DNA of 64,000 bases, taken from Dryococelus australis. Taxonomy: Eukaryota > Arthropoda > Insecta > Phasmatodea > Phasmatidae. Position numbers and translations under genes: made by a program. Where the stretch lies: contig CM057009.1 of the NCBI GenBank assembly GCA_029891345.1, forward strand, positions 307,622,666 through 307,686,665, read 5' to 3'. The notes below the pieces were generated by a model. That model saw only the letters and a program-made list of their open reading frames with translations, had not been told where the DNA came from and searched no databases. Every line of letters starts with the position of its first letter. Positions within the stretch are counted from its first letter, which is position 1. Positions 4,500 to 52,714 of the stretch are shown piece after piece.

Positions 4500-6560
4500 G
4501 TAGGCTGTTTCTCACAGTCGTTCGACTCCACCATCTATGTAGTTCCTTCATCGCCTACTAGAGTGGGCAAATCGCCAGTGTGTGTATTTATTTACGAATT
4601 AAAAGGTGTAATTTTTCATACATGAGAAGGTATCTAAAAAGTTATTTTAAAGTACATTCCAGGCAGGACTTTATCAAAATATTAGAATTTTAAAACTTTA
4701 TTTTTAAAAAATTAATTCAATCGATATTTTTAATATTTACTTTATTCAATTTGTTTTTATATGGTACAAAAAACAATCTAATTTAAAATTAAGTCGAATA
4801 GCCTTGTAAAGACTCACGCACGCACAGGCAGGCGAGGCAGATGCACCTTTTATGACACACAAAGAGTGCTGGCGACAACATGAGGCAACTGTGAGGAAAC
4901 GATACCCAGAGTAAATTACTCCCTAGACAAGCGCACGTGAACTGATCGTGGTCGCACGTAGCCTTGTCAAATCAATCATACATCTAGGAATCGATGCATT
5001 CATAAATAATTAGAATTATTTTATTTAAATTTATTTTATTTATCATTTTAAAAATGCCTAAATGTTTGACAAATACAGTAAAATATACCAAAAATTAGTT
5101 TTAATGTAAAATCGGTTAAAAAAATTCTAAGTTATGTAAATTTTACACTTTGACATGACAGCTGATAGCATTTAAAAAAAATTAATGCATGACGAGCTTC
5201 GAACCCCACGACCCATTAGATAAGTGTCCAGTATGCTAACCAATTGACCACCACATGCTCAAATGATGGGCGAGTGCTTCAATGTTCTATTAAAAACCCT
5301 TTCGTTACTTTATGAATCATATGTACCTAAGCTCAGATAATTTATTTTATATTCATTAAAAATCATTATTTAGTATGCCTTATTCTCCCAAGTCGGGCTG
5401 TAAACATACTTTTAAGCAGGTGAATAATAATTTCCTATCTCTTAGGGCCAGTCTCGTTAAATCCAGTCTGCAGGCATCATTTCTAGTCCCAGATGTATAG
5501 TTTTAGTATATATTTACATATGTATGCAAAACCCCTTTATAACCATAGTGATTAATACATATATATTTCCTTTACATTGATTTTTTTACAAAAACATTTT
5601 ATAACATACTGATGACATACAGAATTAAAAAAGAAATAAAATATTATATTTAAAATGTTTTAAATTTTATTAAAATATGTTACTACAAAAACAATCAAAA
5701 ATTAACCCGGCTACCTATATACATGTTGATGTTGACTTTTGCCCCCTGCATTCGTTTCTCGTAACAAATTAATTTTCGTAGGCATAGGGGTATGCCAAAT
5801 AAAAATTATATTTTATTCTATTTTAATATTTATTTAATTGAAAATTTTTTAAGTTTTACCTAAATTGTACTTAAAGTACAGCAGAACAAATCAAAAATAT
5901 CAATTTCATCACTGGTCTCCCCTCTTGGAGTCTAATTATTTTACGATGTCGCTATCTGCTAGTTATTTATTATCTCGAATGTTTTGTAGGAATAAAAGTA
6001 TCCTACTCGGCTTTTGTTAAATGTATTTATATGTGTCTAAACCAAGTGCCATCATACTCTCTATAACAGGAAAGTAGGCAGGATACACCACCAGCAAGAA
6101 ATTAAAAACTTTTTTTATGTTATATATATATATACACACACATACCCCAGAGTACAAACATAAAAACAGAACCCTTAAATTTTTCACACCAGTCACATAG
6201 TAACTTTACAGCAGCATGCTCACATTTCATGTACTAATATCATCTATTTATATGCAGCTCAAGGCAGTCTACGCTAGAAAGCGTCCAACGAGAACCATTG
6301 GACATATATTCTTCTTCTTCGCGACAAAGATTTCTTTCAATAACTCTACAGCCCCTAGGATACTATCAACATTTGAGCAGTGCTTGATTCGCAGTCTTGA
6401 ATGCTCGGCGACTGATGGCTTCATCCAATGGCTGAGACTTTTCGTAGGTACATTCCAAGCAAACATTTTATTTTATGAGTCCCTCCTCAACTTCTTCTGT
6501 TAATTCATTAATTATCCTTTGCTTTAGTCCAGATATGTAAATATGTCGTTCGTACCTACA
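4500..6560. other. No gene recognised
   Basis: AT-rich sequence apart from the tRNA relic near 5.2 kb. A short open stretch on the minus strand at 6525-6370 (with a VCLECTYEK segment) lies just downstream of the finger gene at 6587-7036. It could be remains of a neighbouring gene, but no family is recognisable. Confidence 0.5.
5190..5262 (-). repeat. tRNA-derived relic (SINE head or tRNA pseudogene)
   Basis: On the minus strand an A-box-like TGGTCAATTGGTTAGCA is followed about 30 nt later by a B-box-like GGGGTTCGAAGC, the spacing of an internal Pol III promoter. The acceptor arms do not pair, so this is a relic and not a working tRNA. Confidence 0.5.
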
Positions 6561-6586: not shown

Positions 6587-7036
6587 TTAAGTACCCTTGA
6601 ATGTGGATTTTTTCAGGTAGAATTCGTTCGGTGTGGTTTCGCCAATAGCTAGTACAGGTCGTTTCGTAGCTGCTGAAACTCGACCTTTACAGTTCTTGCT
6701 ATGTGGCTTCACCTTATCGCCGCGTTTGAACAGTCGCTTGCACTTTATGCTTTGATGCATAGCTCAGGAAGGTCCCTTCACACAAGAAGTTCTTTCATGC
6801 TTCCTTGCACTTAGCCTGTAGTCAGATATTTTGTCACAGTAACAGCAACTAAGCCTTGACGAAGTCATCGATGGCAGTACTGCTGTAACTGTACCATCTG
6901 AAGAAGTCGATGGTGCTGTCTGGGTCACACCTGAAGAAGTCCATGGCGATGCTGCTGCCGCAGGTGTCCCATCCGAAGAAGTCGACCGCACTTTGCGAAC
7001 CTCAGGCGTTGATGTACCAGCAACCTTTGGATCCAT
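6587..7036 (-). pseudogene. Paired C2HC zinc-finger protein, one in-frame stop
   Basis: The ATG at 7036 opens a 149-codon frame broken by a single TGA after residue 90 (6764-6766). Residues 1-65 are Ser/Thr/Pro/Ala-rich with no motif. Finger 1 (about residues 66-86) is C-x2-C-x12-H-x4-C. After a linker containing the stop, finger 2 has C-x12-H-x3-C-K-G but its first cysteine is serine (AGC). A basic tail of about 30 residues follows to the TAA at 6587. The finger-finger spacing matches gene C at 39.6-40.2 kb and the gene at 52.3-52.7 kb. The paired fingers suggest nucleic-acid or protein binding; that is inference. A TATA-type promoter lies about 90 bp upstream. No closer family is recognised. 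Confidence 0.6.
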
Positions 7037-10955: not shown

Positions 10956-11215
10956 TCCTTGAATGTAGGTTGTAGTAGTCTGTGATGAATTATGCTTACT
11001 GACTTTTATTGAATTTTTCTCGAATTTTTGTTTTCAAGGCCATTCAAGGTCACAGGGTCATGGTCATGGTCATTGGCTTCCAATATGGTGGATGGGATAT
11101 GCCTACCAAGATGGTGGTTGCCTACCAAGTTGGTGGTTACCTACCAAGATGGTGGTCGCTTATCAAGATGGCGGCCTCCAGTAACAATAAACAAAGATGG
11201 CTACCTCCAGTAGCA
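10805..11215 (+). promoter_or_regulatory. AGGTCA cluster and ATGGYGG (YY1/Pho-like) array
   Basis: AGGTCA/GGGTCA-type words cluster at 10811-10854 and 11044-11072. From 11078 to 11215 a short unit with CCAANATGGTGG or CAAGATGGCGGCC is repeated five or six times (best match to the YY1/Pho consensus at 11163-11179). The word density is seen directly; binding is inference. Confidence 0.5.
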
Positions 11216-11960: not shown

Positions 11961-12385
11961 TGCACCCAAGTCGCCATTTTCCTACTAGTATCATTGCACA
12001 CCTAACCCTTATTACAATGTAACTAATTTGAACTACAGTCTTCATGCAGCCACTTTATACATTTAACACACTGAATCCAGTCTCACTTAGGACCTTATTA
12101 AGCATAGAATTACCTGTTAAATACAGCACAAAAACCATCACCACCAGTCATGTTATCTTGCTCATTGTCACTGTTACTATCCGGTCACGAAGCATCACTA
12201 CACTAAGTCGATGATCTCACTTTCTCATCTTTTGGGGAACATGCCTGGTCGTAGTTTCTGTGTTTTTCTTCCCTTTCTTCTTACTTTTCATCTACATTTC
12301 CTTGACGTATCTAAATTTTTGCATCTCCGTTATTCTTTGTGGTGTGTTCAGGACTATTCCTGTCTGCTTCTTACGGCCTGTTGGC

Positions 12386-13206
12386 TTAGGCAGGCGTTAT
12401 TTCTTCGAAGTAACTCTTACGGCCATCCCCCTCTAGCGAGTGCGTTGACATATCATTGGCAGGATCAGTTGCCTCGTTTCCAGGAGCATATAAACAAGAA
12501 GCTACCATCGATTCAGTTTGCGGCTGGCCATTGTCTGCACGAGTGGCAGATGGTTCACTTGCAACAACATTAGCAACACTCTCCGTTGTAATTTCGGGGT
12601 TCCCAGAAGCATTGTCCGATACAGCGAATGGGTGAGCTGGAATTTTCTGTGGGTTGTAAGGATAGATGCCACAAGCAGCAAATCCTGCACTAGCATTTCC
12701 CACTGTCGCGGCCGCGCTCCAGGCTGTATTCAACAATGTTCCAAACTGGAGTCATGTCAGTTTTATTCCGGGGTCGCTGTGTATCCAAGTGTTCACATCT
12801 TGCTGCCCAAAAGACTCCAAAGGTTTAAAAAAAACGACCGATCCAAGGGTTGCAAGTATTGGGTTGTGTGGCTAGGAAGGCATAGTAGTATTACGTCATT
12901 GTCTGGAGCAAAGTCCAGTACACCAACGTCAGAACAGTGGCAACTGTGGCCGTCTAAAATAAGCAAACACTTACCTGATTCCTTACGAGGTACAGAATTA
13001 ATTTGTAGCCAGTCTAAAAAGGCCTCAGCATTTACATAACTAGACATTCCATTCATTCTTACAATGCAACCCAGTTGGCATACTATCTTCAAAATCGGGC
13101 TTCTTTCGTTTTCCATTAAAAATACTATACGGGGGCAAGAAGTCATCTTCGGCGTTACTGCAAGCAACTACAGAGAATGTCTTTCCTGTGACATTTATGT
13201 TGGCGG
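12386..13206 (-). pseudogene. pogo/Tigger-type DDE transposase remnant
   Basis: Three minus-strand frames join into the C-terminal half of a Tc1/mariner-superfamily DDE_1 transposase of the pogo group. First comes INVTGKTFSVVACSNAEDD with FLPPYSIFNGKRKKPDF (about 13206-13080), the conserved segment after the first catalytic Asp. After a frameshift comes AEAFLDWL, then CLLILDGHSCH carrying the second catalytic Asp, then LPSHTTQYLQPLDRSFF (down to about 12793). After another shift comes FAACGIYPYNPQKIPAHPF, the usual pogo C-terminal segment (from 12736), with a tail to the stop at 12386. The N-terminal DNA-binding domain and first Asp are missing and there are at least two frameshifts, so it is dead. 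Plus-strand open frames opposite it (12518-13039) are shadows. Confidence 0.85.
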
Positions 13207-17115: not shown

Positions 17116-17252
17116 TACGTTCTACAAGCTGTTTCTGAATTCCCATTAAACATTGTAAGGGCATGTAGTGGGGACCAAGACGTTTACGTTTTGCATAGGA
17201 ACTTATGTGCGGTAACGTATCGTTTCCCCTCGACAAACAAAACACCACCACA

Positions 17253-17546
17253 TCACATGTTGACCTGCAACATACTGTACGTCGTTTTTCCTCTGGATCC
17301 ACTTACAAGAAGGGCTCGATGTGACGACCAGCGACGTCTTACACAAACACGGCACCTACGTATCATGTTCTGGTACACACGATCACCAATACCTGGAAGT
17401 CCAATATCTCCCGCAGACTTAATCCGCGCCAGCAGGTCCTCCTCTGATTCCACAGGCGTCTTGTAAATCACGCCCTTCATTAGGCCCCACCGGAAGTAAT
17501 CTAGCGGAGTCAAGTCGGGTGAACGTGCAGGCCAAGCAATCGGGCA
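17253..17546 (-). pseudogene. Inverted duplicate of transposase C-terminus
   Basis: Minus-strand frame with IAWPARSPDLTPLDYFRWG, which includes the third catalytic Asp region, then a tail ending QVNM. It is the partner of 18634-18922. Upstream of IAWPARS the sequence is unrelated, which marks the duplication breakpoint near 17546. Confidence 0.85.
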
Positions 17547-17797
17547 CCCATGAGAGTACGTGGAAGCCAATGCGGGTGCCAATGACTAGGGTAGTGCGTG
17601 TGTTACTCTACGATCACATGATGTCCCGTGTCCGTGACCGGTTTCTTTACATGCCATTCACTTGATGTTGTAAACTGCCGGGAGACACGTCAATCAGTTG
17701 ACGTTCGTATCTGCTGTAGTGCTTGTGTTCAATTTGTGATTATCCTCCTTGACGTGAAGCCGAGCTGCAATTCTTTGCCAGTATGTTGCTGTTGAAC

Positions 17798-18922
17798 ATG
17801 GAAAACTACACATTTAGGGAATACGCCGAATGAAGTTATTTTACGGCGAAACTCGGTGCAATGGGAGGGCTGCTCGTAAGCTGTACGAGAAGCGTTTTCC
17901 ACACCGCCAGACACCTTTGCACACCTTTTTTTGCCAAGGTTTACCAGAGGGCCTCGGAGACAGGCAAATTCACCGCCAACAGATCCGACTGTGGTGCTCC
18001 ATGGCGGCGGCGCACCCCCGAGTTCGACGAGGCTGTACGCAATGCAGTCGAAGAGGACTCGACAACAAGTACTCGAAACATAGCGCATTGATTCAATGTG
18101 GATCACAAAACTGTCTGACGTGTTCTGCATGAGCAGCTGCCACACGCCTTCCACCTCCAGAGAGTACAGGTAATGCACCCATAGGATTTTGCGCTACGCG
18201 CCGACTACTGCAGGTGGCTCTTGCACCGTTGTGTTGATGAGCCCGTATTTCCACGGCGCATCATCTTCACTGATGTCGCCAGGTTCACCAGGTAAAAAGG
18301 TGTTTTCAATTCCCGCAACAGCAATACTTGGGCCGATGAAAACCCGCGTGCTACGCGCCCTCATGGTTTTCAACAACGATACGGTATCAACACGTGGGTA
18401 GGACTTTTGGATGGACATGTCGTTGGGCCATACCTTCTTCCACGTAGATTCACAGGTGCCATGTACTTGATTTTCCTTGAACACGTACTGCCTGGGTTTT
18501 GGGAAGATGTGCCACTGCATGTGCGTCAAAACATGCGGTTTTATCACGATGGAGCACCACCTCATTTTTCTCTTGCGGTCCGACATCACCTCGATCAATG
18601 TTTTGACCAACAGTGGATAGGTCGAGGTGGCCTGATTGCTTGGCCTGCACGTTCACCCGACTTGACTCCGTTTGACTACTTCCGGTGGGGCCTAATGAAG
18701 GGCGTGATTTACAAGACTCCTGTGGAATCAGAGGAGGACCTGCTGGCGTGGATTAAATCTGCGGGGGATATTGGACTTCCAGGTATTGGTGATCGTGTGT
18801 ACCAGAACATGATACGTAGGTGCCGTGTTTGTGTAAGACGTCGCTGGTCGTCACATCGAGCCCTTCTTGTAAGTGGATCCAGAGGAAAAACGACGTACAG
18901 TATGTTGCAGGTCAACATGTGA
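17798..18922 (+). pseudogene. Mariner-like (DDE_3) transposase, frameshifted
   Basis: ATG at 17798 starts MENYTFREYAE; a one-base loss shifts the frame into LFYGETRCNGRAARKLYEKRF, a helix-turn-helix region. Another frame continues with RRRTPEFDEAVRNAVEEDS (about 18000). Next comes IIFTDVARFTRKGVFNSRN (about 18255), holding the first catalytic Asp but with Ala where the usual segment has Glu (DEA). Then LLPRRFTGAMYL, FYHDGAPPHF (second Asp) and IAWPARSPDLTPFDYFRWG (third Asp) follow, ending at 18922. Several frameshifts make it non-functional. These motifs and their order are those of an insect IS630/Tc1/mariner transposase. Minus-strand frames over it (17729-18178, 18194-18610) are shadows. 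Confidence 0.88.
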
Positions 18923-19063
18923 TGTGGTGGTGTGTTGTTTGTCGAGGGGAAACGATACGTTTCCGCACATAAGTTCCTATGCGAAACGTAACCGTATTGG
19001 TCCCCACTACATGCCCTTACAATGTGTAATGGGAATTTAGACACAACCTGTATATTTCGAATA

Positions 19064-34289: not shown

Positions 34290-34800
34290 TAAAGTAGACT
34301 CACGAGTAGTATAAACATGGCGGTTCTGGCGCATCAGACTTCAGGCTGCTGACCCCATGGACGTAATTAGCATAATTTTTTTAGGCGTCGGGCTGCGGAC
34401 CCCAGGAGCGAGAATTTCCCTTTTCCCCTTTTCCCCATCCAAAACGTCCGAGATCTCGTACAAAAAAGTCATTTTTCACTATTTTCTTTCAAAATTGCCC
34501 TAATTTCCCTACTACCACCAGCGGCCATCTTGGCAGCCTGTTTTAATTAGCGTAATGTAGGCAGTTTGCCCTTTGTGGCGGAGGTTAGCACAATGCGGCG
34601 GAATCGGTCGGAAATGGAGAAATTCCTGCCAAATTGAGAAGTCATTCTTGGCGGCCATCTTGGTAGTGATGGCATAGGTCAACCTAGGACAATTAGCGAC
34701 CTGCTAAAGAGTCTACCATTTTGGCTGCCAGCACCTCGCTGGCGGTGGTGGTGGGGCATCAATGCATCGCAAATGGTCGGATCTCGTGTATCACTGCCTC
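34290..34800 (+). repeat. Left terminal inverted region, unique part
   Basis: Inverse match to 45966-46505. Shared words in mirrored order include GAGTAGTATAAA, GCGGACCCCAGGAGCGAGAA, GGCAGTTTGCCCTTTG, AATTCCTGCCAAATTG and GGTGGTGGGGCATC. It carries three CCATCTTGG/CCATTTTGG words. Confidence 0.88.
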
Positions 34801-34825
34801 CTCCTGAAGTCTGTGTGTGTGCATA

Positions 34826-35480
34826 ACACTTATAAGCATAGGTGGCTGTAATTTACGAACTGTTTAAGTAATAATTGTCCAATTCATAAAATAGGCATCA
34901 ACCACGACTAGGAAAAGGGGCCATGGGGTCAAGTATGTCCGATGTCCACTTATAAGCATAGCTTGCTATAGCTTCCGAACCATTTAAGTTATAGTTGTAA
35001 AATTCATAATATAGGTATCCACCCCGACTAGGAGAGGGGTCGTGGAGTCAAGTATGCCCAATGTCAACTTATAAGACTAAATGGCTATAATTTCCTAACT
35101 TTTTAAGTTATAGTTGTCAAATTCATAACATAGGCATCCACCATGACTAGGAGAAGGATCGCAGGGACAAATATGACCCTTATAAACTTATAAGCATTGG
35201 TGGCTGTAATTTCCAAATTGTTTAATTTATACTTGTCAAATTCATAATATAGGCATCCACCGTGGCTAGGAGAGGGGTCGCTGTGACTTGTATGCCACAT
35301 GTCAGTGTATAAGCATATTTGGGTGTAATTTCGAACCATTTGAGTTATAGTTGGCAAATTCATAACACAGGCATCAACCACGACTAGGAGAAGAGTCGCA
35401 GGGTCAAGTATGCCCGATGTCAACTTAGAAGTATGGTTGGGTGTATTTTCCGAACCATTTAAGTCAGCATGGTCCAACTA
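34826..35480 (+). repeat. Left ~120-bp tandem array
   Basis: ACTTATAAGCATA-like landmarks at about 34827, 34948, 35068, 35187, 35307 and 35424 give spacings of 117-121 bp. Each unit also has GTTATAGTTGTCAAATTCAT and GACTAGGAGAGGGGTCG words. The minus-strand open frame 35103-35477 reads through the array and is not called a gene. Confidence 0.9.
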
Positions 35481-35934
35481 TTTTTCAGTCGCAGGTCAGA
35501 AATTTATACATAAGATACACTGTGGGCCAGCTTAACAATTCAAGACTTAACCATATAAGTATTATTAGAATTGTAACTGCAAATATCTCGTTTCTACACA
35601 TTTAAAAATGTTAACTCACATCAAAATTTCAACATCAACAAACTATTTTAAACTTTGTACATTTCTCTTCTATATAAGCATTTAGTAAAGATTATCAACA
35701 TTTCAAAATTAACAAACCAGTTAAACATGAAATTACCATTCTGTTCAGTAGAAAACTTTTTATCAGTGGGAGCACTGGCCAATCTGCTCATTGATGATGG
35801 TAACAATGTCTGCTTCCATTCCTGTTGTCATGACGCAGAGGTTGAACTTCAAAGCCCTGGCCATGGTCTTGCAATATAAAAATGTCCTAAAATTGAAATT
35901 TTTTCTATTAAGCAGTAAAATTTTCTAAGTTCGA
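35481..35934. other. No gene recognised
   Basis: Spacer between the terminal array and the motif array. The only frame (35655-35879) has no support. Confidence 0.5.
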
Positions 35935-36760
35935 AATGGTGACCAAAGGTCAAGGTCAAGGTAAAAGGTGGCATTTAGAATTCCGGTCGCCCACCACCAG
36001 TGCTTGCCATCTTGCAAATGTATGTCATCATTGTACTGCTGCCAACATGGTTGCCAGACCTTCTGGCCACCCACCCCCAATGGCAGTCGCCATTTTGCAC
36101 ATGGCTGCTGACTATCAACATGGCCGCCTGCGAGGTCAGGTCAAGGGTAGCATCTAAACTTCTTGCCCCCAACACTGGTGGCTGCCATTTTGCAAATGAC
36201 TAAGTTCGAAATGGTGGACACAGGCAAAGGTCAAGGTCATATGACGTCATCCAAGGCCAGGTTAAGGCTGCCCACCACAGCACCCACCATTGTGTAAATG
36301 GCTGTAATCATTGTACTGGCCACCAACATGGCTACTGACACTTTTGGCCAACCACCACTAGCAGCAGCTATTTGGCGAATGGCTGCTGGCCGACACAACA
36401 TGACCACCTGCATTCATACTTCTGGACACCAGCCACTGGCAGCCGCTATTTGTGCAAATGGCTGTCGTCGCTGCATTGGTAACCAATATGGCCATGCACT
36501 GGCCAGCCAGCAAGGTCGCCAGTCACTAGCTGCCATTTTATTAGATAATGCGACTTCCAAGATTCGGCATTTACAATTCATTATTACAACAAAACAATGA
36601 CAATCATTGGTGTACTGGCTGCCACCATGGCCACCCACCACCAGCCGACATTTTGCAAATGATGTCGTTGCACAGGCAGCCAATATGGCCACCAGCTGCC
36701 ACCAGCTGCCAATTTGCTAGACAGTGCGACTTCCAAGATGATAGACCATATTGACAGAGC
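35935..36760. promoter_or_regulatory. Dense ATGGC/GCCAT and AGGTCA motif array
   Basis: At least a dozen ATGGC or GCCAT cores occur, typically as CTGCCATTTTGCAAATG or AACATGGCYGCC, in loose repeats of about 60-130 bp. AGGTCA half-sites cluster at 35945-35962 and 36227-36239, the latter running into a TGACGTCA (36242-36249). These cores match YY1/Pho, nuclear-receptor and CREB-type sites respectively. A regulatory role is inference. Frames over it are shadows of the repeats. Confidence 0.55.
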
Positions 36761-37379
36761 AGGAAGTTCTGGTCCAAGCATGCACTTAGGCCTCCAATTA
36801 ACAGTGATCATCCACCGACTTACATTTACTTACTCACAGGCAGTCATACTGTATCTTCATGACCTTCCCACACTTGTGTAACTGGCCTACACACCGAACC
36901 ATCATTGCATGTACTTAGAGTCCATCTCTGCACTCTCGTGTACTGAGCCTACATCCTACCTTGTCTGTAATTATACTCAGCATCACACTTTACCAAATAA
37001 CCTAGCCTTCATAGCCATACTCTGTCCCCCACCACTACCACCACCACCACCATCACCACCACTACTGAGTGGCTGGGTGTCCAAGATCACAGTAGTGTGT
37101 TCAGGCATGACATACACTCGTGGTTCGTCATGTACCGAGACTTTAATGTTTGTAATGAAGGGTAGTCATATGCTCTCTGCACATAGCATACAGCTGTGCT
37201 ACAATGAATACTCAGCCATCACTTCTGTTCCGACGATGTCAGCCTCCTCCAACATAAAGTTGAGTACATAACCTATTGTACCATTTTCAACATTACCATC
37301 GCTCAAATTAGAAAGTAACCACATTACACATTTAGTATATCATCCAGTAAGCCTTGTCATTTCCTTACTAATGCAGATT
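36761..37379. other. No gene recognised; (CCA)n run
   Basis: Contains (CCA/CCN)n at 37030-37066. A 120-aa plus frame (36909-37271) runs through it with no domain. Confidence 0.5.
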
Positions 37380-37461
37380 GTTGGGTTGGCCAAGAGGTCT
37401 AAGGTGCTGTATTTAAGCTCCGGTTTCCTGTGCGGGGAGCGATTCGAATCCTACACCTGAC
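37380..37461 (+). tRNA. tRNA-Leu(UAA)-like pseudogene
   Basis: The acceptor GTTGGGT pairs with ACCTGAC, allowing G-U pairs. The D region GGTTGGCCAAGAGGTCTAAG matches the Leu type, the anticodon loop TTTAAGC gives UAA, and a long variable arm is present. The T loop TTCGAAT is intact but its stem does not pair, so it is probably not functional. Confidence 0.6.
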
Positions 37462-38048
37462 TAATAATAATTTCCTGCCTCCTTGTTGGTGTGTTACCTA
37501 TGTTGGATAAGGCTTTTGTGTGTGTGCATAAAACTATGGTATATACACAGTCACACATGGTCTGACAGACTTGAAGCAATTACTGGTGTGATATATAGTT
37601 CTCATTGCTTGTGCAATACTTGATGATTGGTAGGATGTGTCGCTATGGTATTGGTGGTACTACTGTGATTGGGTACTGTACTACAAAATGACCAACGACT
37701 TACCGTCTGTAACATCGTCATCGATGCCAAGGGTCTCTGAAGAGTCTCTGGAAGCAATACGGTATCGCTGTGTGGAAATGACATTAAGTCAGCGTGAACG
37801 TTGACATTACATGTTCTACTCCCAGCATACAAGACAATCCACTGTGTTTATCTGAGGTGATAAACTGTATATACACCAGTGTTGATCATCATTAGGAAGA
37901 GTGCACAGAAAAACACCTGCTAACACATAGAGGTAGGTACATTTCTTAGATGGTATGATTTAAAATGACAAAAAAAAACAAACCAAATTTATTGTTGATG
38001 TTTATATTTATTATATACATAACCAAATCGCACACACATACACACATA
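37462..38048. other. No gene recognised
   Basis: Spacer downstream of gene D. A 76-codon minus frame (37602-37832) is not supported. Confidence 0.5.
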
Positions 38049-39117
38049 TCATTCAATGAAGCATCCAGCTCTGTTTCCATAAATAATCGAATTTATCTCA
38101 CCGATGACAGATAGATATCCACATCTCTGCAATGAAACCAACCACCATAGTCTATCAACTAGGTCATTGGGATCTTCCGAGTAGCCAGACTTCATGTCAC
38201 TCTTCGCAGAATGTTTACGATATATAGATATGTCTATGTTCTTCTTCTGAGTTGAGTAGATCTCAGTAACATGCTTTTGCTTTGCAGATGTCACATTATA
38301 ATCAGTAAACTTGGAGGGCACATGGTCGATCTCAGCAGACTTGGAAGTCACATTATCATTCTCAGCAGACTTGGAGGTCCCATTATCATTCTCAGAGGAC
38401 TTGGAGGTCACATTGTCGTTCTCAACAACATCCTGGGTACCATCTTTATTTTTCACTTTACGTGATATCTGCACAGGAGTGTCGTTCACAGCTTCTGACG
38501 ATCTGTATGTCCCATGCTCTGCACCACCTGTGGCCCCTTCTTCACACATTGGTTTGGGGCACCATGCAGGTCCATATAATGATATGGGCGATCAAAGTAA
38601 CATTAGAGTACATGACGAATAGCAGGAAGACTTTTACACATACCAGAATGTATCTTTAGATTATCACATCTACCAAATGTCACAGGACATATATTACATG
38701 TTTGTATTCTAGGGGTCGGTGCCTTTGTACAGTCACTCTGTTCGTGATGGCGAGCATTGCAACTTTTACTAAATAATTTGTATCAGTAACTACACTGTTT
38801 ACCACATAGTTGTTAATTGCTCTGGGAAGTTTCACATGTAGGTGTACTCGATTGCATCCTCTTCAAACATATGTATGAACACACACACGCATACTACTAC
38901 ATAGTGCTGTCTCCTCATGGATGACTCCTTGATGCTGACTCCTCACAGATATATCCTTGATGCTGACTCCTCGCCGATGACTCTTTCAAGCATATGTGTG
39001 AACACAAACACACACATATGTACTACTATGTAATACTGACTCTTCAGGATGACTTCTTGATGCTGACTCCTCACGGCTGACTTCTTGATGCTGACTCATC
39101 ATTGATGTCTCCTTCAT
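38049..39117 (-). pseudogene. Gene D: paired C2HC finger protein with Asn/Ser-rich repeats
   Basis: From the ATG at 39117 a short Ser/Glu-rich leader (MKETSMMSQHQEVSREESAS) is encoded by a ~31-bp minisatellite that continues to about 38915. The finger pair lies at 38794-38632: finger 1 is C-x2-[stop]-x12-H-x4-C, with the second cysteine codon changed to TGA (38785-38783). The linker is exactly ten residues and finger 2 is C-x2-C-x12-H-x3-C-K. After a frameshift, a 166-codon frame (38549-38049) follows. It has about four repeats of a ten-residue END-NVTSKSA unit and ends in a Trp/Leu-containing tail. The repeat-bearing frame might be the C-terminus of the same protein or a separate gene. Its own promoter lies at 39175-39213. 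Function unknown; finger-based binding is inferred. Confidence 0.5.
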
Positions 39118-39145
39118 TCTGCTGCCTCCTCACAGATGACTGCTT
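38915..39145 (-). repeat. ~31-bp minisatellite (GATGCTGACTCCTCA)
   Basis: GATGCTGACTCCTCA recurs with variants around an interrupting block of CATATGTGTGAACACA-type sequence. It overlaps the leader of gene D. Confidence 0.65.
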
Positions 39146-39174
39146 GTTGTACCGATGTCGTATAAGTCAGTTTA

Positions 39175-39213
39175 GCAACTGTGTGTGAATGACTGTTGTT
39201 GGAGTAATTTATA
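39175..39213 (-). promoter_or_regulatory. Promoter of gene D (TATA plus CAGTTG)
   Basis: TATAAAT at 39213-39207 (minus) lies 33 nt upstream of the A in CACAGTTGC at 39180. This is the textbook arthropod TATA-initiator distance and the same CAGTTG word as genes B and C. Confidence 0.65.
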
Positions 39214-39599
39214 CCTCTCCTTCTAACATCTGAAGATAAAGCTATGTTGTCATCTTCTCCATAGTGAGGGAAAATCGGTATGCTTCTATTTGTGAAGTGG
39301 ACTGTACCCACTAGTTCTCAACTCTATAGGATTTACCGAAGCCAGGGTCCAACCCGAGCCCTTGGTCACCATTTATTCTTCCTCTTGACATATCTAGCAT
39401 ATACTATCAACAATAGCGTATTCTGCTGCAGATGAATGCGACACAGCTACAGCCGAAGTCTTGAAGGTTCTGGTATGATATTAATCATCGCGAGGCTCTG
39501 GTTTTGTATAGCTACAGTCCAGCCTCATATTATATTTGACAGGAACATTTTGTTCTACCTTGTCGATAAGTTGTTTTATTATATTAGGGCTCATACTTG
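39214..39599. other. Spacer between genes C and D
   Basis: An 86-codon plus frame (39436-39696) overlaps the end of gene C on the other strand and is taken as a shadow. Confidence 0.5.
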
Positions 39600-40155
39600 T
39601 CAGGAAAAAGAATACATTGTGTGGTGTATCCTGAATGCAGTTCGTTTCAGTAAAAAGCCATTAATTCTACGATTAATAGATGGTGAATATTCTTGAGGGT
39701 TTTTATCAGTGGACTCTCCTTTACAAAGTTTCAAATGACTACTTAAATCTGCATAATGTATATACCTTCTTCGACACTTATCACACTGATATGTCCTATG
39801 AATGGCATTCCTCACACAAGTACAATTTTTGTGTCTCCTAGCATTATACACACTTATAAATACCTTGTCACAATTGTTGCATGGATGTGTTGGCTTGAGC
39901 AACAAACTAGCTTAGACATTTGTAGATAAACCTGCATGTTTCTTTGCTAATCTTCACTTGGCAGGCAGTTCACGGCGGCCGTTGTAGGTTACAAGATATC
40001 ATCTCAAGTTGCCATATACTGTGTGATTTATACTGTTCACATGCAAACATAGTACGGTCTGGATTCTAATGACAACCAGTTTCATGTTGTCTGCATCTGG
40101 TTATTGTAGAAAACATCTTCGTACAGTAGCAGCACAAATAACTTTCCTTTCCCAT
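39600..40155 (-). pseudogene. Gene C: paired C2HC finger protein
   Basis: ATG at 40155 begins MGKESYLCCYCTKMFS, a first finger C-x2-C-x12-H-x3-C, then a stop. The homologous second finger of that pair is traceable in another frame (FACEQYKSHS). The downstream frame (39905-39600, no ATG) holds a complete pair: C-x2-C-x12-H-x4-C, ten residues, C-x2-C-x12-H-x3-C-K-G, then a tail of about 40 residues. It is the best-preserved finger pair in the window. Gene B, just upstream, has the same layout, so B and C are tandem duplicates. The broken N-terminal pair suggests a pseudogene, although an intron cannot be ruled out. Confidence 0.6.
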
Positions 40156-40211
40156 AATCGAATACGAACATGTTGCCCACAGCCGATGTTATCTCTTCAA
40201 GGTCTCAACAG

Positions 40212-40248
40212 CAACTGAGCTGACTGACCTATTCCAGCTTGTTTTATA
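40212..40248 (-). promoter_or_regulatory. Promoter of gene C (TATA plus TCAGTTG)
   Basis: GGTATAAAAC with TATAAAA at 40248-40242 is followed 32 nt later by CTCAGTTGC (A at 40216). The fit to TATA-31/TCAGT is very good. The start ATG lies about 60 nt further on. Confidence 0.72.
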
Positions 40249-40601
40249 CCACATTGCCATTACATCCTGGCAAATGTACTATTAGTGTTAGCTTGAGAGC
40301 AAGTGTTTTTTTGTAACTTATACAGTTTCCACAGCAATGATGTTACAGTATTTCATACCTGCATTCGGCAGTCAGAGACAAAACAATGCTGTATTATGGT
40401 GAGGGAAATCGTTTGTTCATATTCGTTAAGCTGATAGTACCCACTTGTTCCCAACTCTAAATGATTTACTAATGGTGGGGTCTATCAGGAAGAAGATATT
40501 AACATTTGGCTTCAGAGGTGTAGAATAACTTTGAGGTTGTTCATCATCAGCAGTCCCCGTATTCTTTCTGTTACAATGTTTTAAATTACTATTTAAATGG
40601 T

Positions 40602-41047
40602 TTATTGATGCTTATACAGATTCAAACGTCTTTTTAAAGTGCCAACATGCACATATGTTCTTCGACACTTATATCGATATGTCTTACAAATGATACTCTT
40701 CTTACATGAACTTTGTGCATGTCCTCTTTCAGCATATGCATATGTAAATGTCTTGTTACAATATTTGCATGGATGGCATGGTGGTACTAAAGAACTGCTA
40801 TCCAATGAACCATTACATGGCGCTGGTAATAGCTTCAGAAACTGCTTCACAGGTTGTGCAGCACGACCCGTACTTGTTGCATGATGTATTTTCAAGCTGC
40901 TATGTCGACCAAACTGAGATGTAGACTTTTTACATGCAAACTTAATATTACCTGCATTCTGATAACAATAAACTTAATGCTGTCTGCAGATGTTATGTAA
41001 GAAAATACCTTTTTACAATAGCGACACGAATAACTTTCCTATTCCAT
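40602..41047 (-). pseudogene. Gene B: paired C2HC finger protein
   Basis: The start region aligns with gene C: ATGGAATAG corresponds to ATGGGAAAG, so codon 3 is a stop. Then comes ESYSCRYCKKVFS, the first half of finger 1, whose His is lost. In another frame FACKKSTSQFGRHSSLKIHH is a finger-2-like segment with three extra residues. A linker and a second pair follow: finger 1 C-x2-C-x12-H-x4-C is intact; finger 2 has lost its first Cys, its His (Arg) and its last Cys (Tyr). It ends at 40602. Two finger pairs in tandem match the 52-kb gene. Clearly decayed. Confidence 0.55.
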
Positions 41048-41103
41048 CGATGAATACGAGCATGTTATCCACTGCTGATGTTCATTCTTCGAAGTCTGGA
41101 TGA

Positions 41104-41134
41104 CAACTGAGCTGGCCAACCCTATACTAAAACC
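41104..41134 (-). promoter_or_regulatory. Promoter of gene B (degraded TATA plus TCAGTTG)
   Basis: TTTTAGTATAGG (41134-41123) stands where TATA is expected and CTCAGTTGTC follows about 25 nt later. The surrounding sequence (GCTCAGTTG, then CTTCGAAGA) aligns with gene C's promoter. Confidence 0.5.
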
Positions 41135-41158
41135 ATCATATCTGTCCTTCATGAGTTC

Positions 41159-41485
41159 CTAAGGGATGGAATCTGTGTTGAATGATCCTTCACCACTCTT
41201 CCGACATACATTACACCAACCTCTGGAATGTGGTGTGCCCATAACAGTAGTACATCCTTGCAAACACTCCGTACATGGGAGACAGTCGCGTATGTCTTCG
41301 TCCTGTTGTAAATATGTGGGTAGGTGATTGTAGACATACTGGATTTCATTACGTGCATATGTCAGAAGGAATTCGTTATGCAAGTATGCGAGCTCAGTTT
41401 CTTTGTCGAGTGCTGATAGTAAATTATGCTTTCCATATGCCACAATACCTGATAGAATATTCTGAACACTAGAACAGGATGCCAT
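41159..41485 (-). CDS. Gene A: 108-aa Cys-rich protein, unknown
   Basis: The ATG at 41485 (MASCSSVQNILSG) opens an uninterrupted frame of 108 residues. Residues 1-65 look helical and polar. The C-terminal part has CLPCTECLQGC followed by a His and then CNVC, spaced like a small zinc-binding domain (C-x2-C-x2-C-x3-C, His, C-x2-C). No family is recognised, and it is not of the paired-finger type. It sits first in a row of four minus-strand genes and has its own promoter about 110 nt upstream. Lack of stops, a proper ATG and a well-placed promoter favour a real gene. An upstream in-frame TTG would add eight residues and is not used. Confidence 0.5.
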   Translation of the reverse strand: MASCSSVQNILSGIVAYGKHNLLSALDKETELAYLHNEFLLTYARNEIQYVYNHLPTYLQQDEDIRDCLPCTECLQGCTTVMGTPHSRGWCNVCRKSGEGSFNTDSIP

Positions 41486-41592
41486 TATTTTCGCTATGTT
41501 CCAAGACAAGTTTGTTTGGTGTAGTTATGGTACAAACTGCTAACATGAAACTATACACTCTCAGGTCTGTCCTAGCCCTAACGACAGACTAA

Positions 41593-41636
41593 CTGCGAAT
41601 GAGCCAGAGAGCTTGTGTGACTGCAAATATATAAAA
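41593..41636 (-). promoter_or_regulatory. Promoter of gene A (TATA plus TCATTC initiator)
   Basis: GGTTTTATATATTT (TATA at about 41634-41627) is followed about 32 nt later by GCTCATTCGCAGTTAGTCTG. The initiator part (TCATTCGCAGTTMGTCTGTC) recurs at about 52903-52884, upstream of the 52-kb finger gene. Confidence 0.68.
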
Positions 41637-41639
41637 CCT

Positions 41640-42540
41640 CGATTTATGCACACATGAAATCCTTATGTAACACGGGTAACACACACACTAACAAGGCAGC
41701 AGAGACTGGAGAGTGAGTGCGAAAACAGCTGTCTGTAGGGAACTGAGTTCGCGACTTGCCACAGTTTATTATTATGGCACAAACACACACACACATAGCA
41801 TCGCAGTTATCACAGTGGAATTGTTGGGCAACTGGATGGAATCTGCCTATACATACTCTAGCATCTCCCCTTCCATAACTCCTATTCTGATCACTGAACC
41901 AATAATATCGCATTCAATCTGTTGTCAATACCAGGATGGGGCAGACATACTTATTCGGGGATATAGCTCTACTAGTTCACTAACAACTTTAGCAAGTTCA
42001 TAACACAACTACTTTATTGAACATTAGAGAATATATATAAATATATAGGAACTTATACAACACATTACAATAAATGATTAAATTAATAAGTATCCAGTTA
42101 ACAATTATTCACAGGCGGCTCAGTGCCATTTAATTCACATTATTCTCAATGCACCTAACCTTGCCAGTTAATATAAATTAGCGCTTAAAGGGGGCAACAT
42201 GGTCTCGAAAGATAATGTTATGCCCTAGCTGCTTACTAGAGTTATTCTCACCAAATAGCACAGAAGAGGGACCCAGAGCTCCTCTAGGCCTCGCTGTCAT
42301 GATGCGTTCGTTGCTACCTCCAGCAACTAATGTCGTGGTACCTCAAGCATCGTCAACTCACTGGGGGGTGGGGAGCGGCGTCTATAGCCGTTTTATATGC
42401 CTCGCCCAGTAGGTCAGCACTGTGTGTTTATAAAACTTCCTCAATCCATATCCCACTGTAGCGTAGGTGGTATATTATCTTGCGGTCGTTGAAGCTTAGG
42501 TGGTATTTTCGCGAGCGGATCTTCCTGGTCGCTACATTAG
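41640..42540. other. No gene recognised; possible plus-strand promoter
   Basis: A plus-strand TTTTATATG at about 42390 followed by AGTAGGTCAGCACTG resembles the gene C promoter (ATAGGTCAG at similar spacing), but no open frame follows. Frames at 41713-42003 and 42215-42412 are unsupported. Confidence 0.4.
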
Positions 42541-43700
42541 GCTCATTGAATGTTCTATCACAGGCAGGGTCAGTGGCGTATGACTGATTTTACTTGGACA
42601 GTTGTGGTACATGCAACGAAGGTTTGAGCATAGGCAGGGTCGACAGAGTTTAACTGTCTGTAATTTCAAGGGCTCGGTCGATCCACGTGTGTTGGTAGGG
42701 TCATGACTGTCTTTAACTGTTAAGGCTGAGTTCATGAGTGTAGGTCAGAGACAGACTATGACTATAATTAGGCACTTGTCATGCTAGTTTGCGATGTCTC
42801 AACTGCTGGCCATGAGGTGGGCCTCTTTACACTCGTACATGTTCAGCTTAGTCTTCATTCGAACTGTTCCTGCTGTGTGCATACAAGGTACACACTTCGC
42901 CTGCATCATATGATTAAGGCTTGTAGATGATGGCTCTTCGTAATGTTTTGGCAGTGGGGCCTTGCTTCCCTCCGACGAACTATTGTCTGCGGGTGAACAT
43001 GTAATCGGTAATGTATTGTGTTTATGGAAAGGCAAGGTGGTCATTGCTTCCAGTGAGTTCAAGATGATGATATGTGCTCACGACCTGCAGGTCTTCTGAA
43101 ACAGCTACACTCATTAAGGTAACATCTCTGCTCTGCATTGTCTAAGAGCAGAGTACATAACATAGTTGACATGTTTAAGTGAGTGTGTGTGTTGCGATAC
43201 CTCCTTACTCGGTTCGTGTCTCGTCTTGTTACAGTGCGTGTGACCAATGATTGTAAGTATTTGTGAATAATATATACATTGCACAATATGCTCGTTACTA
43301 CCCATTGAAACTCGGCTGGGGAGAGCAAGCAGGTCTTTTTAGGGACCTGGGATCAAGACTTGTCATTATGGGAACACACAACATCGTAGTAATCATAGTG
43401 GTACGGCTTAACATGTAATGCTGGATGGAATCTGTCTAAGTGCATACATCAATGGTTCAGGAAGGGTTGACTGCTTGTAATATCAAAGGCTTGGTACATG
43501 ATGTGAGTACATACATTGAAGGTTCGGGCAGTTTCTACAGAGTATGATTCCTTATAAATGCAAAGGCTTGGTATATGCATTGAAGGTTCGGGTAGGGCTG
43601 TGGGGTATGGCTTCCTCTGACTGTAAGAAAAAAAAGTCTCGGTCTGTACACAAATGCAGATAAGGTCGTCAGAGAATGACTGTCTGTAGGTCGGGGACAG
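42541..43700. repeat. Degenerate ~85-bp tandem repeats
   Basis: Units share GGTACATGCATTGAAGGTTC, a GGGCAGGGTC-like word and AGAGTATGACTGTCTGTAAT. They are clearest at 43430-43700 and weaker at 42545-42780. Related words continue at 43915-43960 and 44240-44430. The intervening 42790-43330 has only unsupported minus frames. Confidence 0.55.
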
Positions 43701-43879
43701 GGTATGACTTTCATGGGCGCTACATGTCTGTCATCGTCATGGGCAGTGGGATCAACGTTGAACGAGTGTTTGCAGACGTGTCAGCATACACTCTTAATGT
43801 GAATCGAACCTTTGGAGCCTTAATTTTCAAGGATTATACACCATCGTCATACTTGTCTAGTCATCACTTGTGTAGTACA

Positions 43880-43882
43880 AGT

Positions 43883-43917
<35 letters not shown>
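43880..43917 (+). repeat. (TG)n microsatellite
   Basis: Uninterrupted GT dinucleotides after a GTGTGTAT start. Confidence 0.9.
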
Positions 43918-43918
<1 letters not shown>

Positions 43919-44013
43919 TGGGCTTGGTACATGCATGCAGGTCGGGGACTGACTGTTTTTTTAATTACTGACACTGTTGTAGACAACATGCCGGTTTTTA
44001 TGACAACTTGTAT

Positions 44014-44250
44014 TACCACTCTCTACAAGAATCGAATCTGCGATACTTCGAGGTTGATTCAGGGTATATGCATTGTTTCCTTTCAATTGTATACTGGTAA
44101 GTACATTGACAAGGGGAGGTGGTGGTGCAGATGCAGTACTTGGTCGGTATCGACCGTGCCCAGAAAGGCAGGACTGGTCATTGCGGTCTCTGCTTCAAGC
44201 AAGGTGATCCCTCCCTGACTGCTCCCGGTTATTATTACCTGCTTCGGTAC
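44014..44250 (+). repeat. Direct duplicate, copy 1
   Basis: Matches 44812-45045 at an offset of 798 bp: ACCACTCTCTAC, then AATCGAA, GATACYTCGAGG, GATTCAGGGTA and TACTGGTAAGTACA. Each copy has a perfect splice-donor-like GTAAGT (44097-44102). It then encodes a CGLC knuckle (HCGLCFKQG here, HCGLCFQQG in copy 2). Confidence 0.7.
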
Positions 44251-44536
44251 ACGAGTGCAGGGTGTATCTCAAAGGTTCGGAAATTACAGCGATCTATGTG
44301 GCGTATCACTGTCTATAATTGTAAAACAAAGGCGGATCATAAGTACAGGTCGGCGATAGAGTATGTCTGTAATTGCTAATGGGTCGGTAAATGAGTGCAG
44401 GTCGGAGAGTATAACTGTCATGCTAGTATCTCTTCATGGGCAGTGGGACCGACAATTGACTGGTAGTGCTCTCAATGGGATTCAAACATAAGATACCATA
44501 TTTATTCGAGTAGAATACAGAAACAAAAAAAAAAGT

Positions 44537-44622
44537 GTCAGGTACGTGGATTTGAACACATTCTCCCTTTTACTGGAACCAGAGCTTATATCAGGTGCCT
44601 TAGGCCGCTCTGCCAACCTGTC
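44537..44622 (-). tRNA. tRNA-Leu(UAA)-like pseudogene
   Basis: Minus strand: GACAGGT ... ACCTGAC acceptor with one mismatch, D region GGCAGAGCGGCCTAAGGCAC, anticodon loop TATAAGC (UAA, but U33 is A), variable arm, and a T arm with an eight-base loop. It is followed by a ten-base T run, a Pol III terminator. It looks like a decayed tRNA gene. Confidence 0.6.
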
Positions 44623-44811
44623 AATTTGTATTAGTGGTGGAATTACATGGCTTTTGTTGAGTGTCATACGATGTATGCTCTTGTCTAGCAGTCGCTTGTG
44701 CAATACACACGTGCAGGTTGGTAGGTATTAGTTTCCTTTTGTGCACTATAGTGGACGATGTGAGAAAGCACAGAGAATGATGCATATGACTATGTCTCTA
44801 TTTGTGTGTGT

Positions 44812-45045
44812 GACCACTCTCTACTGGAATCGAAACTGCGATACCTCGAGGATGATTCAGGGTACATGCATTAGTTCCTTTCAATAGTGTACTGGTAAGT
44901 ACAATGATAAGGGGGATGTGGTGGGAATGTAGTACTTGGTTGCTATCTATAATGCACAGAAATGCAGGGCCAGTCATTGTGGTCTCTGCTTCCAGCAAGG
45001 TCACATTGTCGATGAAGACGACGACAATGGTGAGATATGCTAGTG
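44812..45045 (+). repeat. Direct duplicate, copy 2
   Basis: Partner of 44014-44250; GTAAGT at 44895-44900. The long minus frames over 44798-45624 are not supported by any domain. Confidence 0.65.
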
Positions 45046-45569
45046 GCCTATGCGTATGCACTGCTACACAAGTTAAGGTAAGGGATAATTCATTTCGTAA
45101 TAGGAAGTTTATCATTCTAGCATGTGTTGTTGTATGTGTGGGAACTAAGTTGTCAAGCGAAGACTGTGTATCCATTGCGAGTGACATATCATTATATTCA
45201 AATATACATTGAGGTCTCCATACATGGAGCATAGGTGCAAGGCCGGTGGTACTGACCGAATGTCTGGAAGTAAGTAAGCAGTTACACAAGTGTGCAGCAT
45301 GTCGGCGTACTGCGAGTCACTGGCACTTAGTTGGGCAGTGGTGAGCGCTTGAGAATGTATGGTCATAGTTGATGTAGGCAGGTGGAGGGGTGAGGACAAG
45401 GGATAGAGAGCGCGAGGACGAGTGGTAGGTCGCCGGTCAAGTTGCCAAGGGCGGAATGCGTGAGGAAGTGTGTGTTGCCAGGCAGTGGCACTGAGAGGAC
45501 ATGAGAGACAGAGCTGAGTAAGAACAGGGAAACATGCAGGTCGACATATGTCCACATGTCCCTTCTCAT

Positions 45570-45965
45570 CGTCAGGGTTTATGCATGTATTATGATTTTG
45601 GTAATTGTATCTCAAATGCTTCATAACTTACAGCAATGTATCATAGTAGTGGTTTATGTCTATTTTATGAATTTGGAGAGGATAACTCAAATGGTTAGGA
45701 AATTACAGCCACCTATGCTTATAAGTTGGCATAAGGCATACTTGTCCCTGCGACCCCTCTCCTCATTGTAGCAGATGTGTATGTTATGACTTTGCCAACT
45801 ATAACTCATATGTTCGGAAATTACACCCAACTATATTTATACACTGTCATAGGGCATACTTGTCTGTGCGACCCCTCTCCTAGTCATGGTTGATGCCTAT
45901 TTTATGAATTTTACAATTATAACTTAAATGATTCGGAAATAACAGTCAACTATGCCTAAAAGTAT
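45570..45965 (-). repeat. Right ~120-bp tandem array
   Basis: About three units, inverse to the left array (34826-35480): CCCCTCTCCTAGTCATG, ATGAATTT, AACTATAACT and TTATAAGTTG words recur at about 120-bp spacing. Confidence 0.88.
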
Positions 45966-46505
45966 TATGCACAAACACACACAGACTTAATGAGGAGGCA
46001 GCGTTACACGAGATCCGATAGCTCGTGATGCCTCGATGCCCCACCACCGCTGCAACCGAGGTGCTGGCTCCAAAAATGGTCGATATTCTCGCTGGTCTCC
46101 AATTGTCCTGGGTTGACATAGGTAGTGATACCAAGATGGCCACCGGGAATGACTTCCCAATTTGGCAGGAATTTCTTAATTTCCGACCGATTCTGCTCCA
46201 TTGTGCAAACCTCCGCCGCAAAGGGCAAACTGCCTGGATTATGCGAATTAGCACAGGCTGTCAAGATGGCCGCCTGAGGCGGGAGTGAAATAAGGGGAAT
46301 TTTGAAGGAAAAAAGGGAATAATGACGTTTTCATACACGAAATCGGACTTTTTGGACGGAGAAAAAGGGCAAAAAGGGAAATTCTCGCTCCTGGGGTCCG
46401 CATCCCGATGCTTGAAATTATGCTAATTGGGTCCGCGGAGTCCGAAGTCTGAAGCCTGTTGCGCCAGAAACGCCAATTTTATACTACTCTCACATGTGCA
46501 CTATT
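45966..46505 (-). repeat. Right terminal inverted region, unique part
   Basis: Inverse copy of 34290-34800 with mirrored landmarks (TTCTCGCTCCTGGGGTCCGC, GGGCAAACTGCC, CCAAGATGGCCACC, TTTATACTACTC). Substitutions are frequent but there are few indels, so the pair is old. Confidence 0.88.
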
Positions 46506-52257: not shown

Positions 52258-52714
52258 TTAGTCTAGTGTTAAAGAACAGTTCCTACATTGAGCACTCAAG
52301 GTAGCCCTATTCGCATATACAGCATTGCAGTTTTTACATGTGTAGGTCGTGTAGCTGATGGTAAATGGACAGTTACTATATTCATGTTGTCTGATGTTAT
52401 TCCTAGTCGCAAATGTCTTGGTACAATACTTGCACTCGCTTCCCGATGATTGAAAAAACAGTACCTTTACACTTCTTATGTCTATATAGGATATGACTAC
52501 AAATTAACACAGCATCGCACTTATCAGAGTGGAATGACTGGTATGCTGGAGTGAACAAACAATGACTACGTTCATGTCGACGTGTATGACCACTTGTAGT
52601 AAAAGTATTTCCACAGTAATAACATTGTTTCTGTAATGCTTCTAGAGACTCTTCAGCGATCCTTGCTGATGGTGTTAAAGATGGTACGTCTTCATGCAAT
52701 GTTGCGGTCTTCAT
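52258..52714 (-). pseudogene. Paired C2HC finger protein (four fingers, one frameshift)
   Basis: ATG at 52714 (MKTATLHEDVPSLTPS) opens a leader of about 30 residues. The first pair is finger 1 C-x2-C-x12-H-x4-C and finger 2, whose first Cys is Ser, otherwise C-x12-H-x3-C-K-G. A one-base frameshift near 52440 then leads into a second pair: finger 3 (CKYCTKTFATRNNIRQHE..C) intact, ten residues, and finger 4 with C-x2-C-x12, Gln in place of His, and a final Cys. It ends at the TAA at 52258. Repairing only the reading frame mentally gives about 152 codons, close to the 149 of the 7-kb copy. This is the longest finger layout seen. An initiator word shared with gene A and a tRNA-Leu-like sequence lie just upstream. 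Confidence 0.6.

What the first reader, a model, noticed from the sequence alone, without database searches (positions are those of the whole stretch)
38632..41047. New-looking paired C2HC zinc-finger family with fixed spacing
Genes B, C and D, and the genes at 6587-7036 and 52258-52714, share a module: C-x2-C-x12-H-x4-C, about ten residues, C-x2-C-x12-H-x3-C, often followed by Lys-Gly. Spacing is kept even where residues have mutated, across five copies at three loci. Finger 1 ends in Cys after x4 and finger 2 in Cys after x3. This is not the usual C2H2 array linker and I cannot assign it to a named family.
Basis: seen in the sequence. Interest (0 to 1): 0.85.

Follow-up and report, generated by a model that had tools for sequence, protein, structure and literature searches.

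The report
Zinc fingers of a giant transposon
The paired zinc fingers are real, but they are not a new insect gene family: they match the front end of the DNA-copying protein of Maverick/Polinton giant transposons, carried here by a 12,000-base transposon that seems to lack the rest of that protein and is present in this insect genome in at least hundreds of copies.

Summary
The modules exist as described, on the minus strand; one pair (39723-39881) is intact, the others are degenerate. They belong to a dispersed repeat: 150 scored copies match genome-wide, of 13,926 first-look candidates. The 38-41 kb cluster lies inside a 12,184-bp element (34305-46488) with long terminal inverted repeats and a 6-bp target duplication: 5/6 identical here, 6/6 in a second copy. 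These are Maverick/Polinton features. The domain beside the fingers is homologous to the region just before the polymerase in Polinton PolB genes of this genome (E 3.9e-27, fingers excluded), and those genes begin with the same four C2HC fingers in two pairs. I found no PolB or integrase in the 12-kb element, and 23 of 26 readable copies stop right after the shared domain. I read it as a non-autonomous Polinton derivative carrying a truncated PolB N-terminus. The 6.8 kb module carries the same domain; the 52.5 kb modules are repeats of unproven origin. New variant of a known kind.

The parts
34305..46488 (-). whole transposon (12,184 bp), genes read on the minus strand
   Evidence: inverted termini AGTAGTATAAA...; colinear copies elsewhere
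34305..35152 (+). terminal inverted repeat, low-coordinate end
   Evidence: 78% identical over 855 columns to 45641-46489 inverted
45641..46488 (-). terminal inverted repeat, high-coordinate end
   Evidence: similarity to both ends of the C2 copy runs on to about 45281
34828..35464 (.). 119-bp tandem repeats, 5.4 copies, in the low end; a 118-bp array of 2.5 copies lies at 45656-45953
34299..34304 (+). target site duplication CTCACG
46489..46494 (+). target site duplication CTCACA (5 of 6 identical to the other side)
40608..41029 (-). ORF1 remnant: finger remnant of pair A0 (41029-40988) and pair B0 (40775-40608), a diverged tandem copy of ORF2
   Evidence: 64% DNA identity of 40612-41121 to 39721-40229; HMM
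40036..40134 (-). ORF2 pair A, finger 1 then stop
39717..39887 (-). ORF2 pair B, both C2HC fingers intact (open frame 39603-39911)
39256..39618 (-). domain homologous to the region preceding the polymerase in Polinton PolB (another frame than pair B, so broken)
   Evidence: tblastn with L060, E 1.9e-19
38630..38800 (-). pair C (finger 1 broken by a stop, finger 2 intact)
38049..38549 (-). 166-aa ORF with the C-terminal block ...DPNDLVDRL... (38052-38288)
   Evidence: copies elsewhere lie downstream of pair B (55 of 150 listed hits, 53 of them at 0.9-1.8 kb)
6683..6850 (-). separate degenerate finger pair outside the element
6243..6539 (-). same PolB-N-terminal domain following the 6.8 kb pair
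   Evidence: tblastn E 3e-14
52463..52630 (-). finger pair outside the element, member of another abundant repeat
52273..52440 (-). second finger pair in tandem

Best explanation
The paired C2HC fingers come from the N-terminus of the protein-primed DNA polymerase (PolB) gene of Polinton/Maverick giant transposons. In this window they sit on a 12-kb PolB-less derivative of such an element. Shown: the element has long inverted termini and a 6-bp target duplication; it carries tandem ORFs with C2HC pairs, one followed by the PolB-type N-terminal domain; in most readable copies a stop follows directly after that domain; PolB genes in this genome start with the same four fingers and domain. Inferred: PolB and integrase of full-length Polintons act in trans on similar ends to copy and insert the element; in the full-length protein the fingers steer the polymerase to element DNA; in the derivative the truncated protein is a leftover or weak accessory factor, and the copies seen are mostly decayed.
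For: Genome-wide copies: 150 scored, 150 matches at E <= 3.7e-28. Shared colinear DNA runs beyond the fingers by 1.5 kb or more on at least one side in each of the 14 ten-kb copies (L042 and L045-L049 are cut short on one or both sides). Inverted termini and TSD. The 25-bp terminal motif occurs 162+167 times at <=1 mismatch, against 1+0 for the reversed control. The element is one unit: 55 of 150 C-terminal-block hits lie 0.9-4.4 kb downstream of a pair-B hit, 0 in the wrong order, 2 on the opposite strand. Homology outside the fingers: a profile from 14 copies hits the PolB genes L060 (3.9e-27), L057 (7.6e-24) and L059 (4.5e-9); reciprocal tblastn to the window 1.9e-19. PolB genes start with paired C2HC fingers: L058/L057, L059, L060; 29 of 150 such finger hits lie 1.0-2.7 kb upstream of a PolB hit on the same strand, 15 of the top 20, with 0 in the wrong order and 0 on the opposite strand. 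PolB identity: PF03175 over cut-off. Shared stop after the domain: 23 of the 26 copies in which the place can be read, the window included (12 of 38 distinct copies not readable).
Against: Two PolB loci of another lineage (L055, L056) show no finger pair or domain in the 1.5 kb upstream that I hold (best E 0.23). TSD was read in only two copies. Absence of integrase rests on Pfam scans of ORF pieces: 12 of the 14 pieces of 100 aa or more in L044 (10 kb of an 11.7-kb copy) and 3 pieces of L051. 12 kb is below the 15-40 kb given for Mavericks.
Confidence: 0.87

Rival explanations
1. A host zinc-finger gene family, amplified by ordinary duplication, encoding DNA-binding regulators.
For: Intact, correctly spaced fingers; beta-beta-alpha folds resembling Kaiso and tramtrack finger pairs, though no match reaches E 0.001; dN/dS slightly below the flank.
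Against: The two copies whose ends I read have TIRs and TSDs; copies are dispersed over many contigs and often broken (14 of 30 with in-frame stops in the pair-B block, which starts 5 residues before the query; 3 of 38 distinct copies open across ORF2, the 7 doubly fetched copies counted once), and carry a PolB-associated domain.
Confidence: 0.03
2. An array of alternative 3' exons of a lola-type BTB gene, whose isoforms carry C2HC-C2H2 finger pairs.
For: Finger 1 spacing C-x2-C-x12-H-x4-C recalls lola (recalled); lola L and T are described as C2HC-C2H2 (passage in PMC1947980); all modules lie on one strand.
Against: Finger 2 here is C2HC, not C2H2; the adjacent domain is PolB-type; the copies are dispersed transposons.
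Confidence: 0.01
3. The truncated finger+domain protein is a working gene of a Polinton satellite: it binds element ends and recruits, or competes with, the PolB of full-length Polintons, and was kept by selection.
For: ORF1 and ORF2 are tandem paralogues of one architecture with a Met just before pair A; the stop right after the shared domain is present in 23 of 26 readable copies, so it looks ancestral and not a late accident; 3 of 38 distinct copies are still open across most of ORF2; ligand columns average 0.94 major residue against 0.83 in other columns.
Against: dN/dS is only slightly below the flank value (0.64 vs 0.70-0.81); the domain alone (0.73, 0.65-0.83) is not distinguishable from the flank. 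Of the 3 open copies only L044 runs to the shared stop.
Confidence: 0.2
4. The element is self-sufficient through an unrecognised protein encoded elsewhere in its 12 kb.
For: Several ORF blocks (for example the 144-aa block near -1600 and the C-terminal block) match no Pfam family.
Against: The ends and 6-bp duplications are of Polinton type; at least 132 PolB matches are listed elsewhere in the genome to act in trans.
Confidence: 0.05

Closest known systems
Polinton/Maverick PolB gene, N-terminal region (own-genome loci L057/L058, L059, L060)
   Same: four C2HC fingers in two pairs, then the TAFRG...KGSGWTL domain
   Different: here the frame stops before the polymerase; pair B finger 1 ends H-x4-C instead of H-x3-C
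Polinton/Maverick giant transposons
   Same: long TIRs, 6-bp target duplication (criteria from PMC8969392, passage)
   Different: 12 kb; no PolB or integrase found
Zinc-finger 'Ziftr' genes and N-terminal OTU-like domain of PolB in adintoviruses (PMC11071296, passages)
   Same: zinc-finger genes and an N-terminal PolB extension in the same virus/transposon consortium
   Different: homology to those genes was not tested
Classical C2H2 fingers, PF00096
   Same: fold and C-x2-C-x12-H core; the two best modules score 25.0 and 27.1 against a 25.2-bit cut-off, the other three submitted 14.7-19.9
   Different: last ligand is Cys; 10-residue linker between paired fingers

Membership tests
Polinton/Maverick transposon | 6-bp target site duplication | tested here: met
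   CACAGA/CACAGA in the C2 copy, CTCACG/CTCACA in the window; 2 copies read
Polinton/Maverick transposon | terminal inverted repeats of hundreds of bases | tested here: met
   about 0.85-1.2 kb
Polinton/Maverick transposon | 15-40 kb length | tested here: not met
   12.2 kb and 11.7 kb; nine noted terminus pairs 4.1-20.4 kb apart
Polinton/Maverick transposon | protein-primed DNA polymerase B | tested here: not met
   polymerase-domain pieces (60 aa and more) of L055-L060 have no tblastn match at 1e-3 in the window, the 14 ten-kb copies or the two C2 flanks
Polinton/Maverick transposon | retrovirus-like integrase, capsid, ATPase, protease | tested here: inconclusive
   no Pfam match in the ORF pieces submitted (12 of 14 pieces of 100 aa or more of L044, 3 of L051); shorter or broken pieces not scanned
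Polinton PolB N-terminal region | paired C2HC fingers followed by the same domain | tested here: met
lola-type alternative exons | C2HC finger followed by C2H2 finger | tested here: not met
   finger 2 ends in Cys in the intact pair and in 28 of 30 copies
lola-type alternative exons | shared BTB-domain first exons | not tested
   no BTB search run

The most novel reading that the evidence does not exclude
A PolB-less Polinton satellite has turned the finger-plus-domain front end of the polymerase gene into stand-alone proteins (two tandem paralogues) that bind the element's ends and hijack or damp the full-length Polintons, which would explain how a 12-kb passenger reached hundreds of copies or more in one insect genome.
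Probability: 0.2. Interest if true: 0.65.

Novelty: new variant of a known kind. Interest (0 to 1): 0.42.

Why it matters
It takes a supposed new zinc-finger gene family off the list and gives it an origin. It points to a C2HC-pair plus domain architecture at the start of Polinton polymerase genes for which my scans found no dedicated Pfam family, to a large Polinton load in this genome, and to a high-copy non-autonomous derivative. Such fingers can be mistaken for host transcription factors in gene annotation of large insect genomes. If the truncated protein works, it offers a way to study how Polintons recognise their ends.

Tried and rejected
Lola-type exon array: my first guess, dropped after the genome-wide repeat and the PolB-type domain. 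Splice donor after the domain: I wrote in notes 3 and 8 that a GTAAGT donor follows GPLR; that was wrong, the sequence is a TAG stop in the copies read. In one search my script's own tally of that stop was off by one letter and printed 0; the figure 23 of 26 is counted from the 26 strings it printed (L024, L025 and L042 have none). Relatives in viral contigs: two scans, 1 and 37 pattern matches, none confirmed. Pfam and PHROGs for the domain: nothing convincing. Selection test: weak; no codon-phase signal worth claiming. Autonomous partner sharing the ends: not found among the listed hits. A capture-recapture figure of about 409 copies comes from two lists of best hits, so it covers well-kept copies only. 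Species: the 3.415-Gb assembly resembles Periplaneta americana (17 chromosomes, 3.2 Gb; PMC12774602, abstract and other passages and its repeat section); this is inference. That section names Tc1-Mariner and hAT as the main DNA elements; the words Polinton and Maverick occur 0 times in its main text. Searches for prior reports: seen as listings and abstract starts only (15 of 22 papers listed, 15 of 41), except the passages cited; none of the listed titles or abstract starts describes this element. Passages of PMC2836005 and PMC5718144 were also seen and are not relied on.
Full report
Observation. One pair, 39723-39881, has all eight ligands, the ten-residue linker and the following Lys-Gly. 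The others have lost one or more ligands or carry stops, but largely keep the spacing. Pairs missing at most two ligands number 5 in the window, against 0.04 per dinucleotide shuffle in 25 shuffles.

A repeat, not a gene family. The intact module was searched in the window's own genome (3.415 Gb, 646 contigs). Of 13,926 first-look candidates 150 were scored and gave 150 matches at E <= 3.7e-28; apart from the window itself identities are 54-74%, and the hits lie on contigs C1-C15, C17, C173 and C219. The 52.6 kb module gives a second such list (150 scored of 11,335). Among 30 fetched copies, which are the best-scoring and not random, and include the window copy itself, 14 have an in-frame stop in the pair-B block, which begins 5 residues before the query. 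All eight ligands are in place in 17 of 30.

The element. Fourteen copies fetched at 10 kb share colinear DNA with others for 1.5 kb or more on at least one side of the fingers; L042 and L045-L049 are cut short on one or both sides. Comparing the window with one contiguous 22-kb stretch on C2 shows similarity ending in long inverted repeats. In the window these are 34305-35152 and 45641-46488, 78% identical over 855 columns, with 119-bp tandem repeats inside. Both ends start AGTAGTATAAA. The C2 copy is flanked by CACAGA on both sides; the window copy by CTCACG and CTCACA. A 25-bp terminal motif occurs 162 plus 167 times at one mismatch or less, against 1 plus 0 for the reversed pattern. Among the places listed I noted nine pairs facing each other 4.1 to 20.4 kb apart; in four copies the motif lies 6.2-6.8 kb from pair B. 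Six-bp duplications and inverted repeats of hundreds of bases are the stated marks of Mavericks/Polintons (PMC8969392, passage).

Genes on the element. In gene orientation there are: ORF1 with finger pairs A0 and B0; ORF2 with pairs A and B followed by a domain of some 150 residues; pair C; and a block ending ...DPNDLVDRL.... ORF1 and ORF2 are 64% identical in DNA in the window. In the copies I looked at (L040, L044, L051) a Met stands just before pair A or A0. A stop follows the end of the domain (GPLRK or similar) in 23 of the 26 distinct copies in which the place can be read, in whatever frame, the window among them; in 12 of 38 it cannot be read. By my count the L044 protein is about 305 aa. 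Fifty-five of 150 C-terminal-block hits lie 0.9-4.4 kb downstream of a pair-B hit on the same strand, none in the wrong order and 2 on the opposite strand. ORF2 is open from before pair A to beyond +560 in 3 of 38 distinct copies (4 of 45 rows, in which 7 copies appear twice, one of the open ones among them); of these three only L044 runs to the shared stop.

What the fingers belong to. The genome holds many PolB genes: 54 PF03175 matches from 91 scored of 6,288 candidates, and 132 matches from 131 scored of 15,662 candidates to a PolB piece. In L057/L058, L060 and L059 the PolB gene, itself broken by stops or frame changes in these copies, is preceded by four C2HC-type fingers in two pairs and then a domain reading TAFRG...KGSGWTL; some of these fingers have lost ligands, in L059 three of the four. 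A profile built only from the post-finger domain of 14 element copies (14 of 30 had an open piece of at least 100 aa) hits that region in L060 at 3.9e-27, L057 at 7.6e-24 and L059 at 4.5e-9, but not L055 or L056, which are another PolB lineage. Going the other way, the L060 region matches window 39618-39256 at 1.9e-19 and window 6539-6243 at 3e-14, so the 6.8 kb module has the same companion domain. Genome-wide, 29 of 150 PolB-type finger hits lie 1.0-2.7 kb upstream of a PolB hit on the same strand, 15 of the top 20, with none in the wrong order or on the opposite strand. The polymerase pieces themselves have no match at 1e-3 in the window, the 14 ten-kb copies or the two C2 flanks; L046 has a separate fragment related to the region upstream of PolB in L055/L056. 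No Pfam polymerase, integrase or capsid family was found in the ORF pieces that I submitted.

Mechanism. Shown: homology, element ends, truncation. Inferred: the element is copied and inserted by PolB and integrase of full-length Polintons acting on similar ends, and the fingers, which fold like classical DNA-binding pairs (modest confidence, no match below E 0.001), help the polymerase protein find element DNA. Whether the truncated protein still acts is open. dN/dS over pair B plus domain is 0.64 (0.58-0.71); wrong frames of the same block give 0.81-0.82, and a flank without a claimed gene gives 0.70-0.81; the domain alone gives 0.73 (0.65-0.83). That is at most a weak sign of selection.

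Comparison with what is known. [quoted passage not shown] I did not test homology to them. Paper searches for Polintons with zinc fingers, in cockroaches, or non-autonomous gave no listed title or abstract start that describes this element (listings partly cut).

Limits. Target duplications were read in two copies only. The autonomous partner with these ends was not found. The 52.5 kb modules are repeats of the same general kind but no element ends were mapped for them. The 6.8 kb module was not searched genome-wide (one search did not complete).

Noticed in passing
17123-19052: Nearly identical inverted repeats (17123-17545 and 18630-19052, 95.7%) flank ORFs that recall a mariner-type transposase: a younger DNA transposon (transposase identity recalled, not tested).
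   Followed up: no
12211-13167: ORF pieces that recall a pogo/jerky-type DDE transposase (recalled, not tested).
   Followed up: no
8357-10972: An inverted repeat of about 1 kb, 75% identical (8357-9347 and 9955-10972), not assigned to an element.
   Followed up: no
52463-52630 and genome-wide: Copies of the 52.6 kb module occur at five listed places in back-to-back inverted pairs 1.3-2.5 kb apart, for example C17:30945869-/30947211+, C4:253985607-/253987955+, C2:147332580-/147335019+; one further pair (C8:81492742+/81494029-) faces inward.
   Followed up: no
37697-37846: Inside the element, on the opposite strand, a 150-bp stretch resembles the 52.5-52.7 kb module (64%), so the two repeat families may have met before.
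   Followed up: partly
own genome, not in the window: Heavy Polinton load: a PolB piece gave 132 matches from 131 scored candidates, out of 15,662 first-look candidates.
   Followed up: partly
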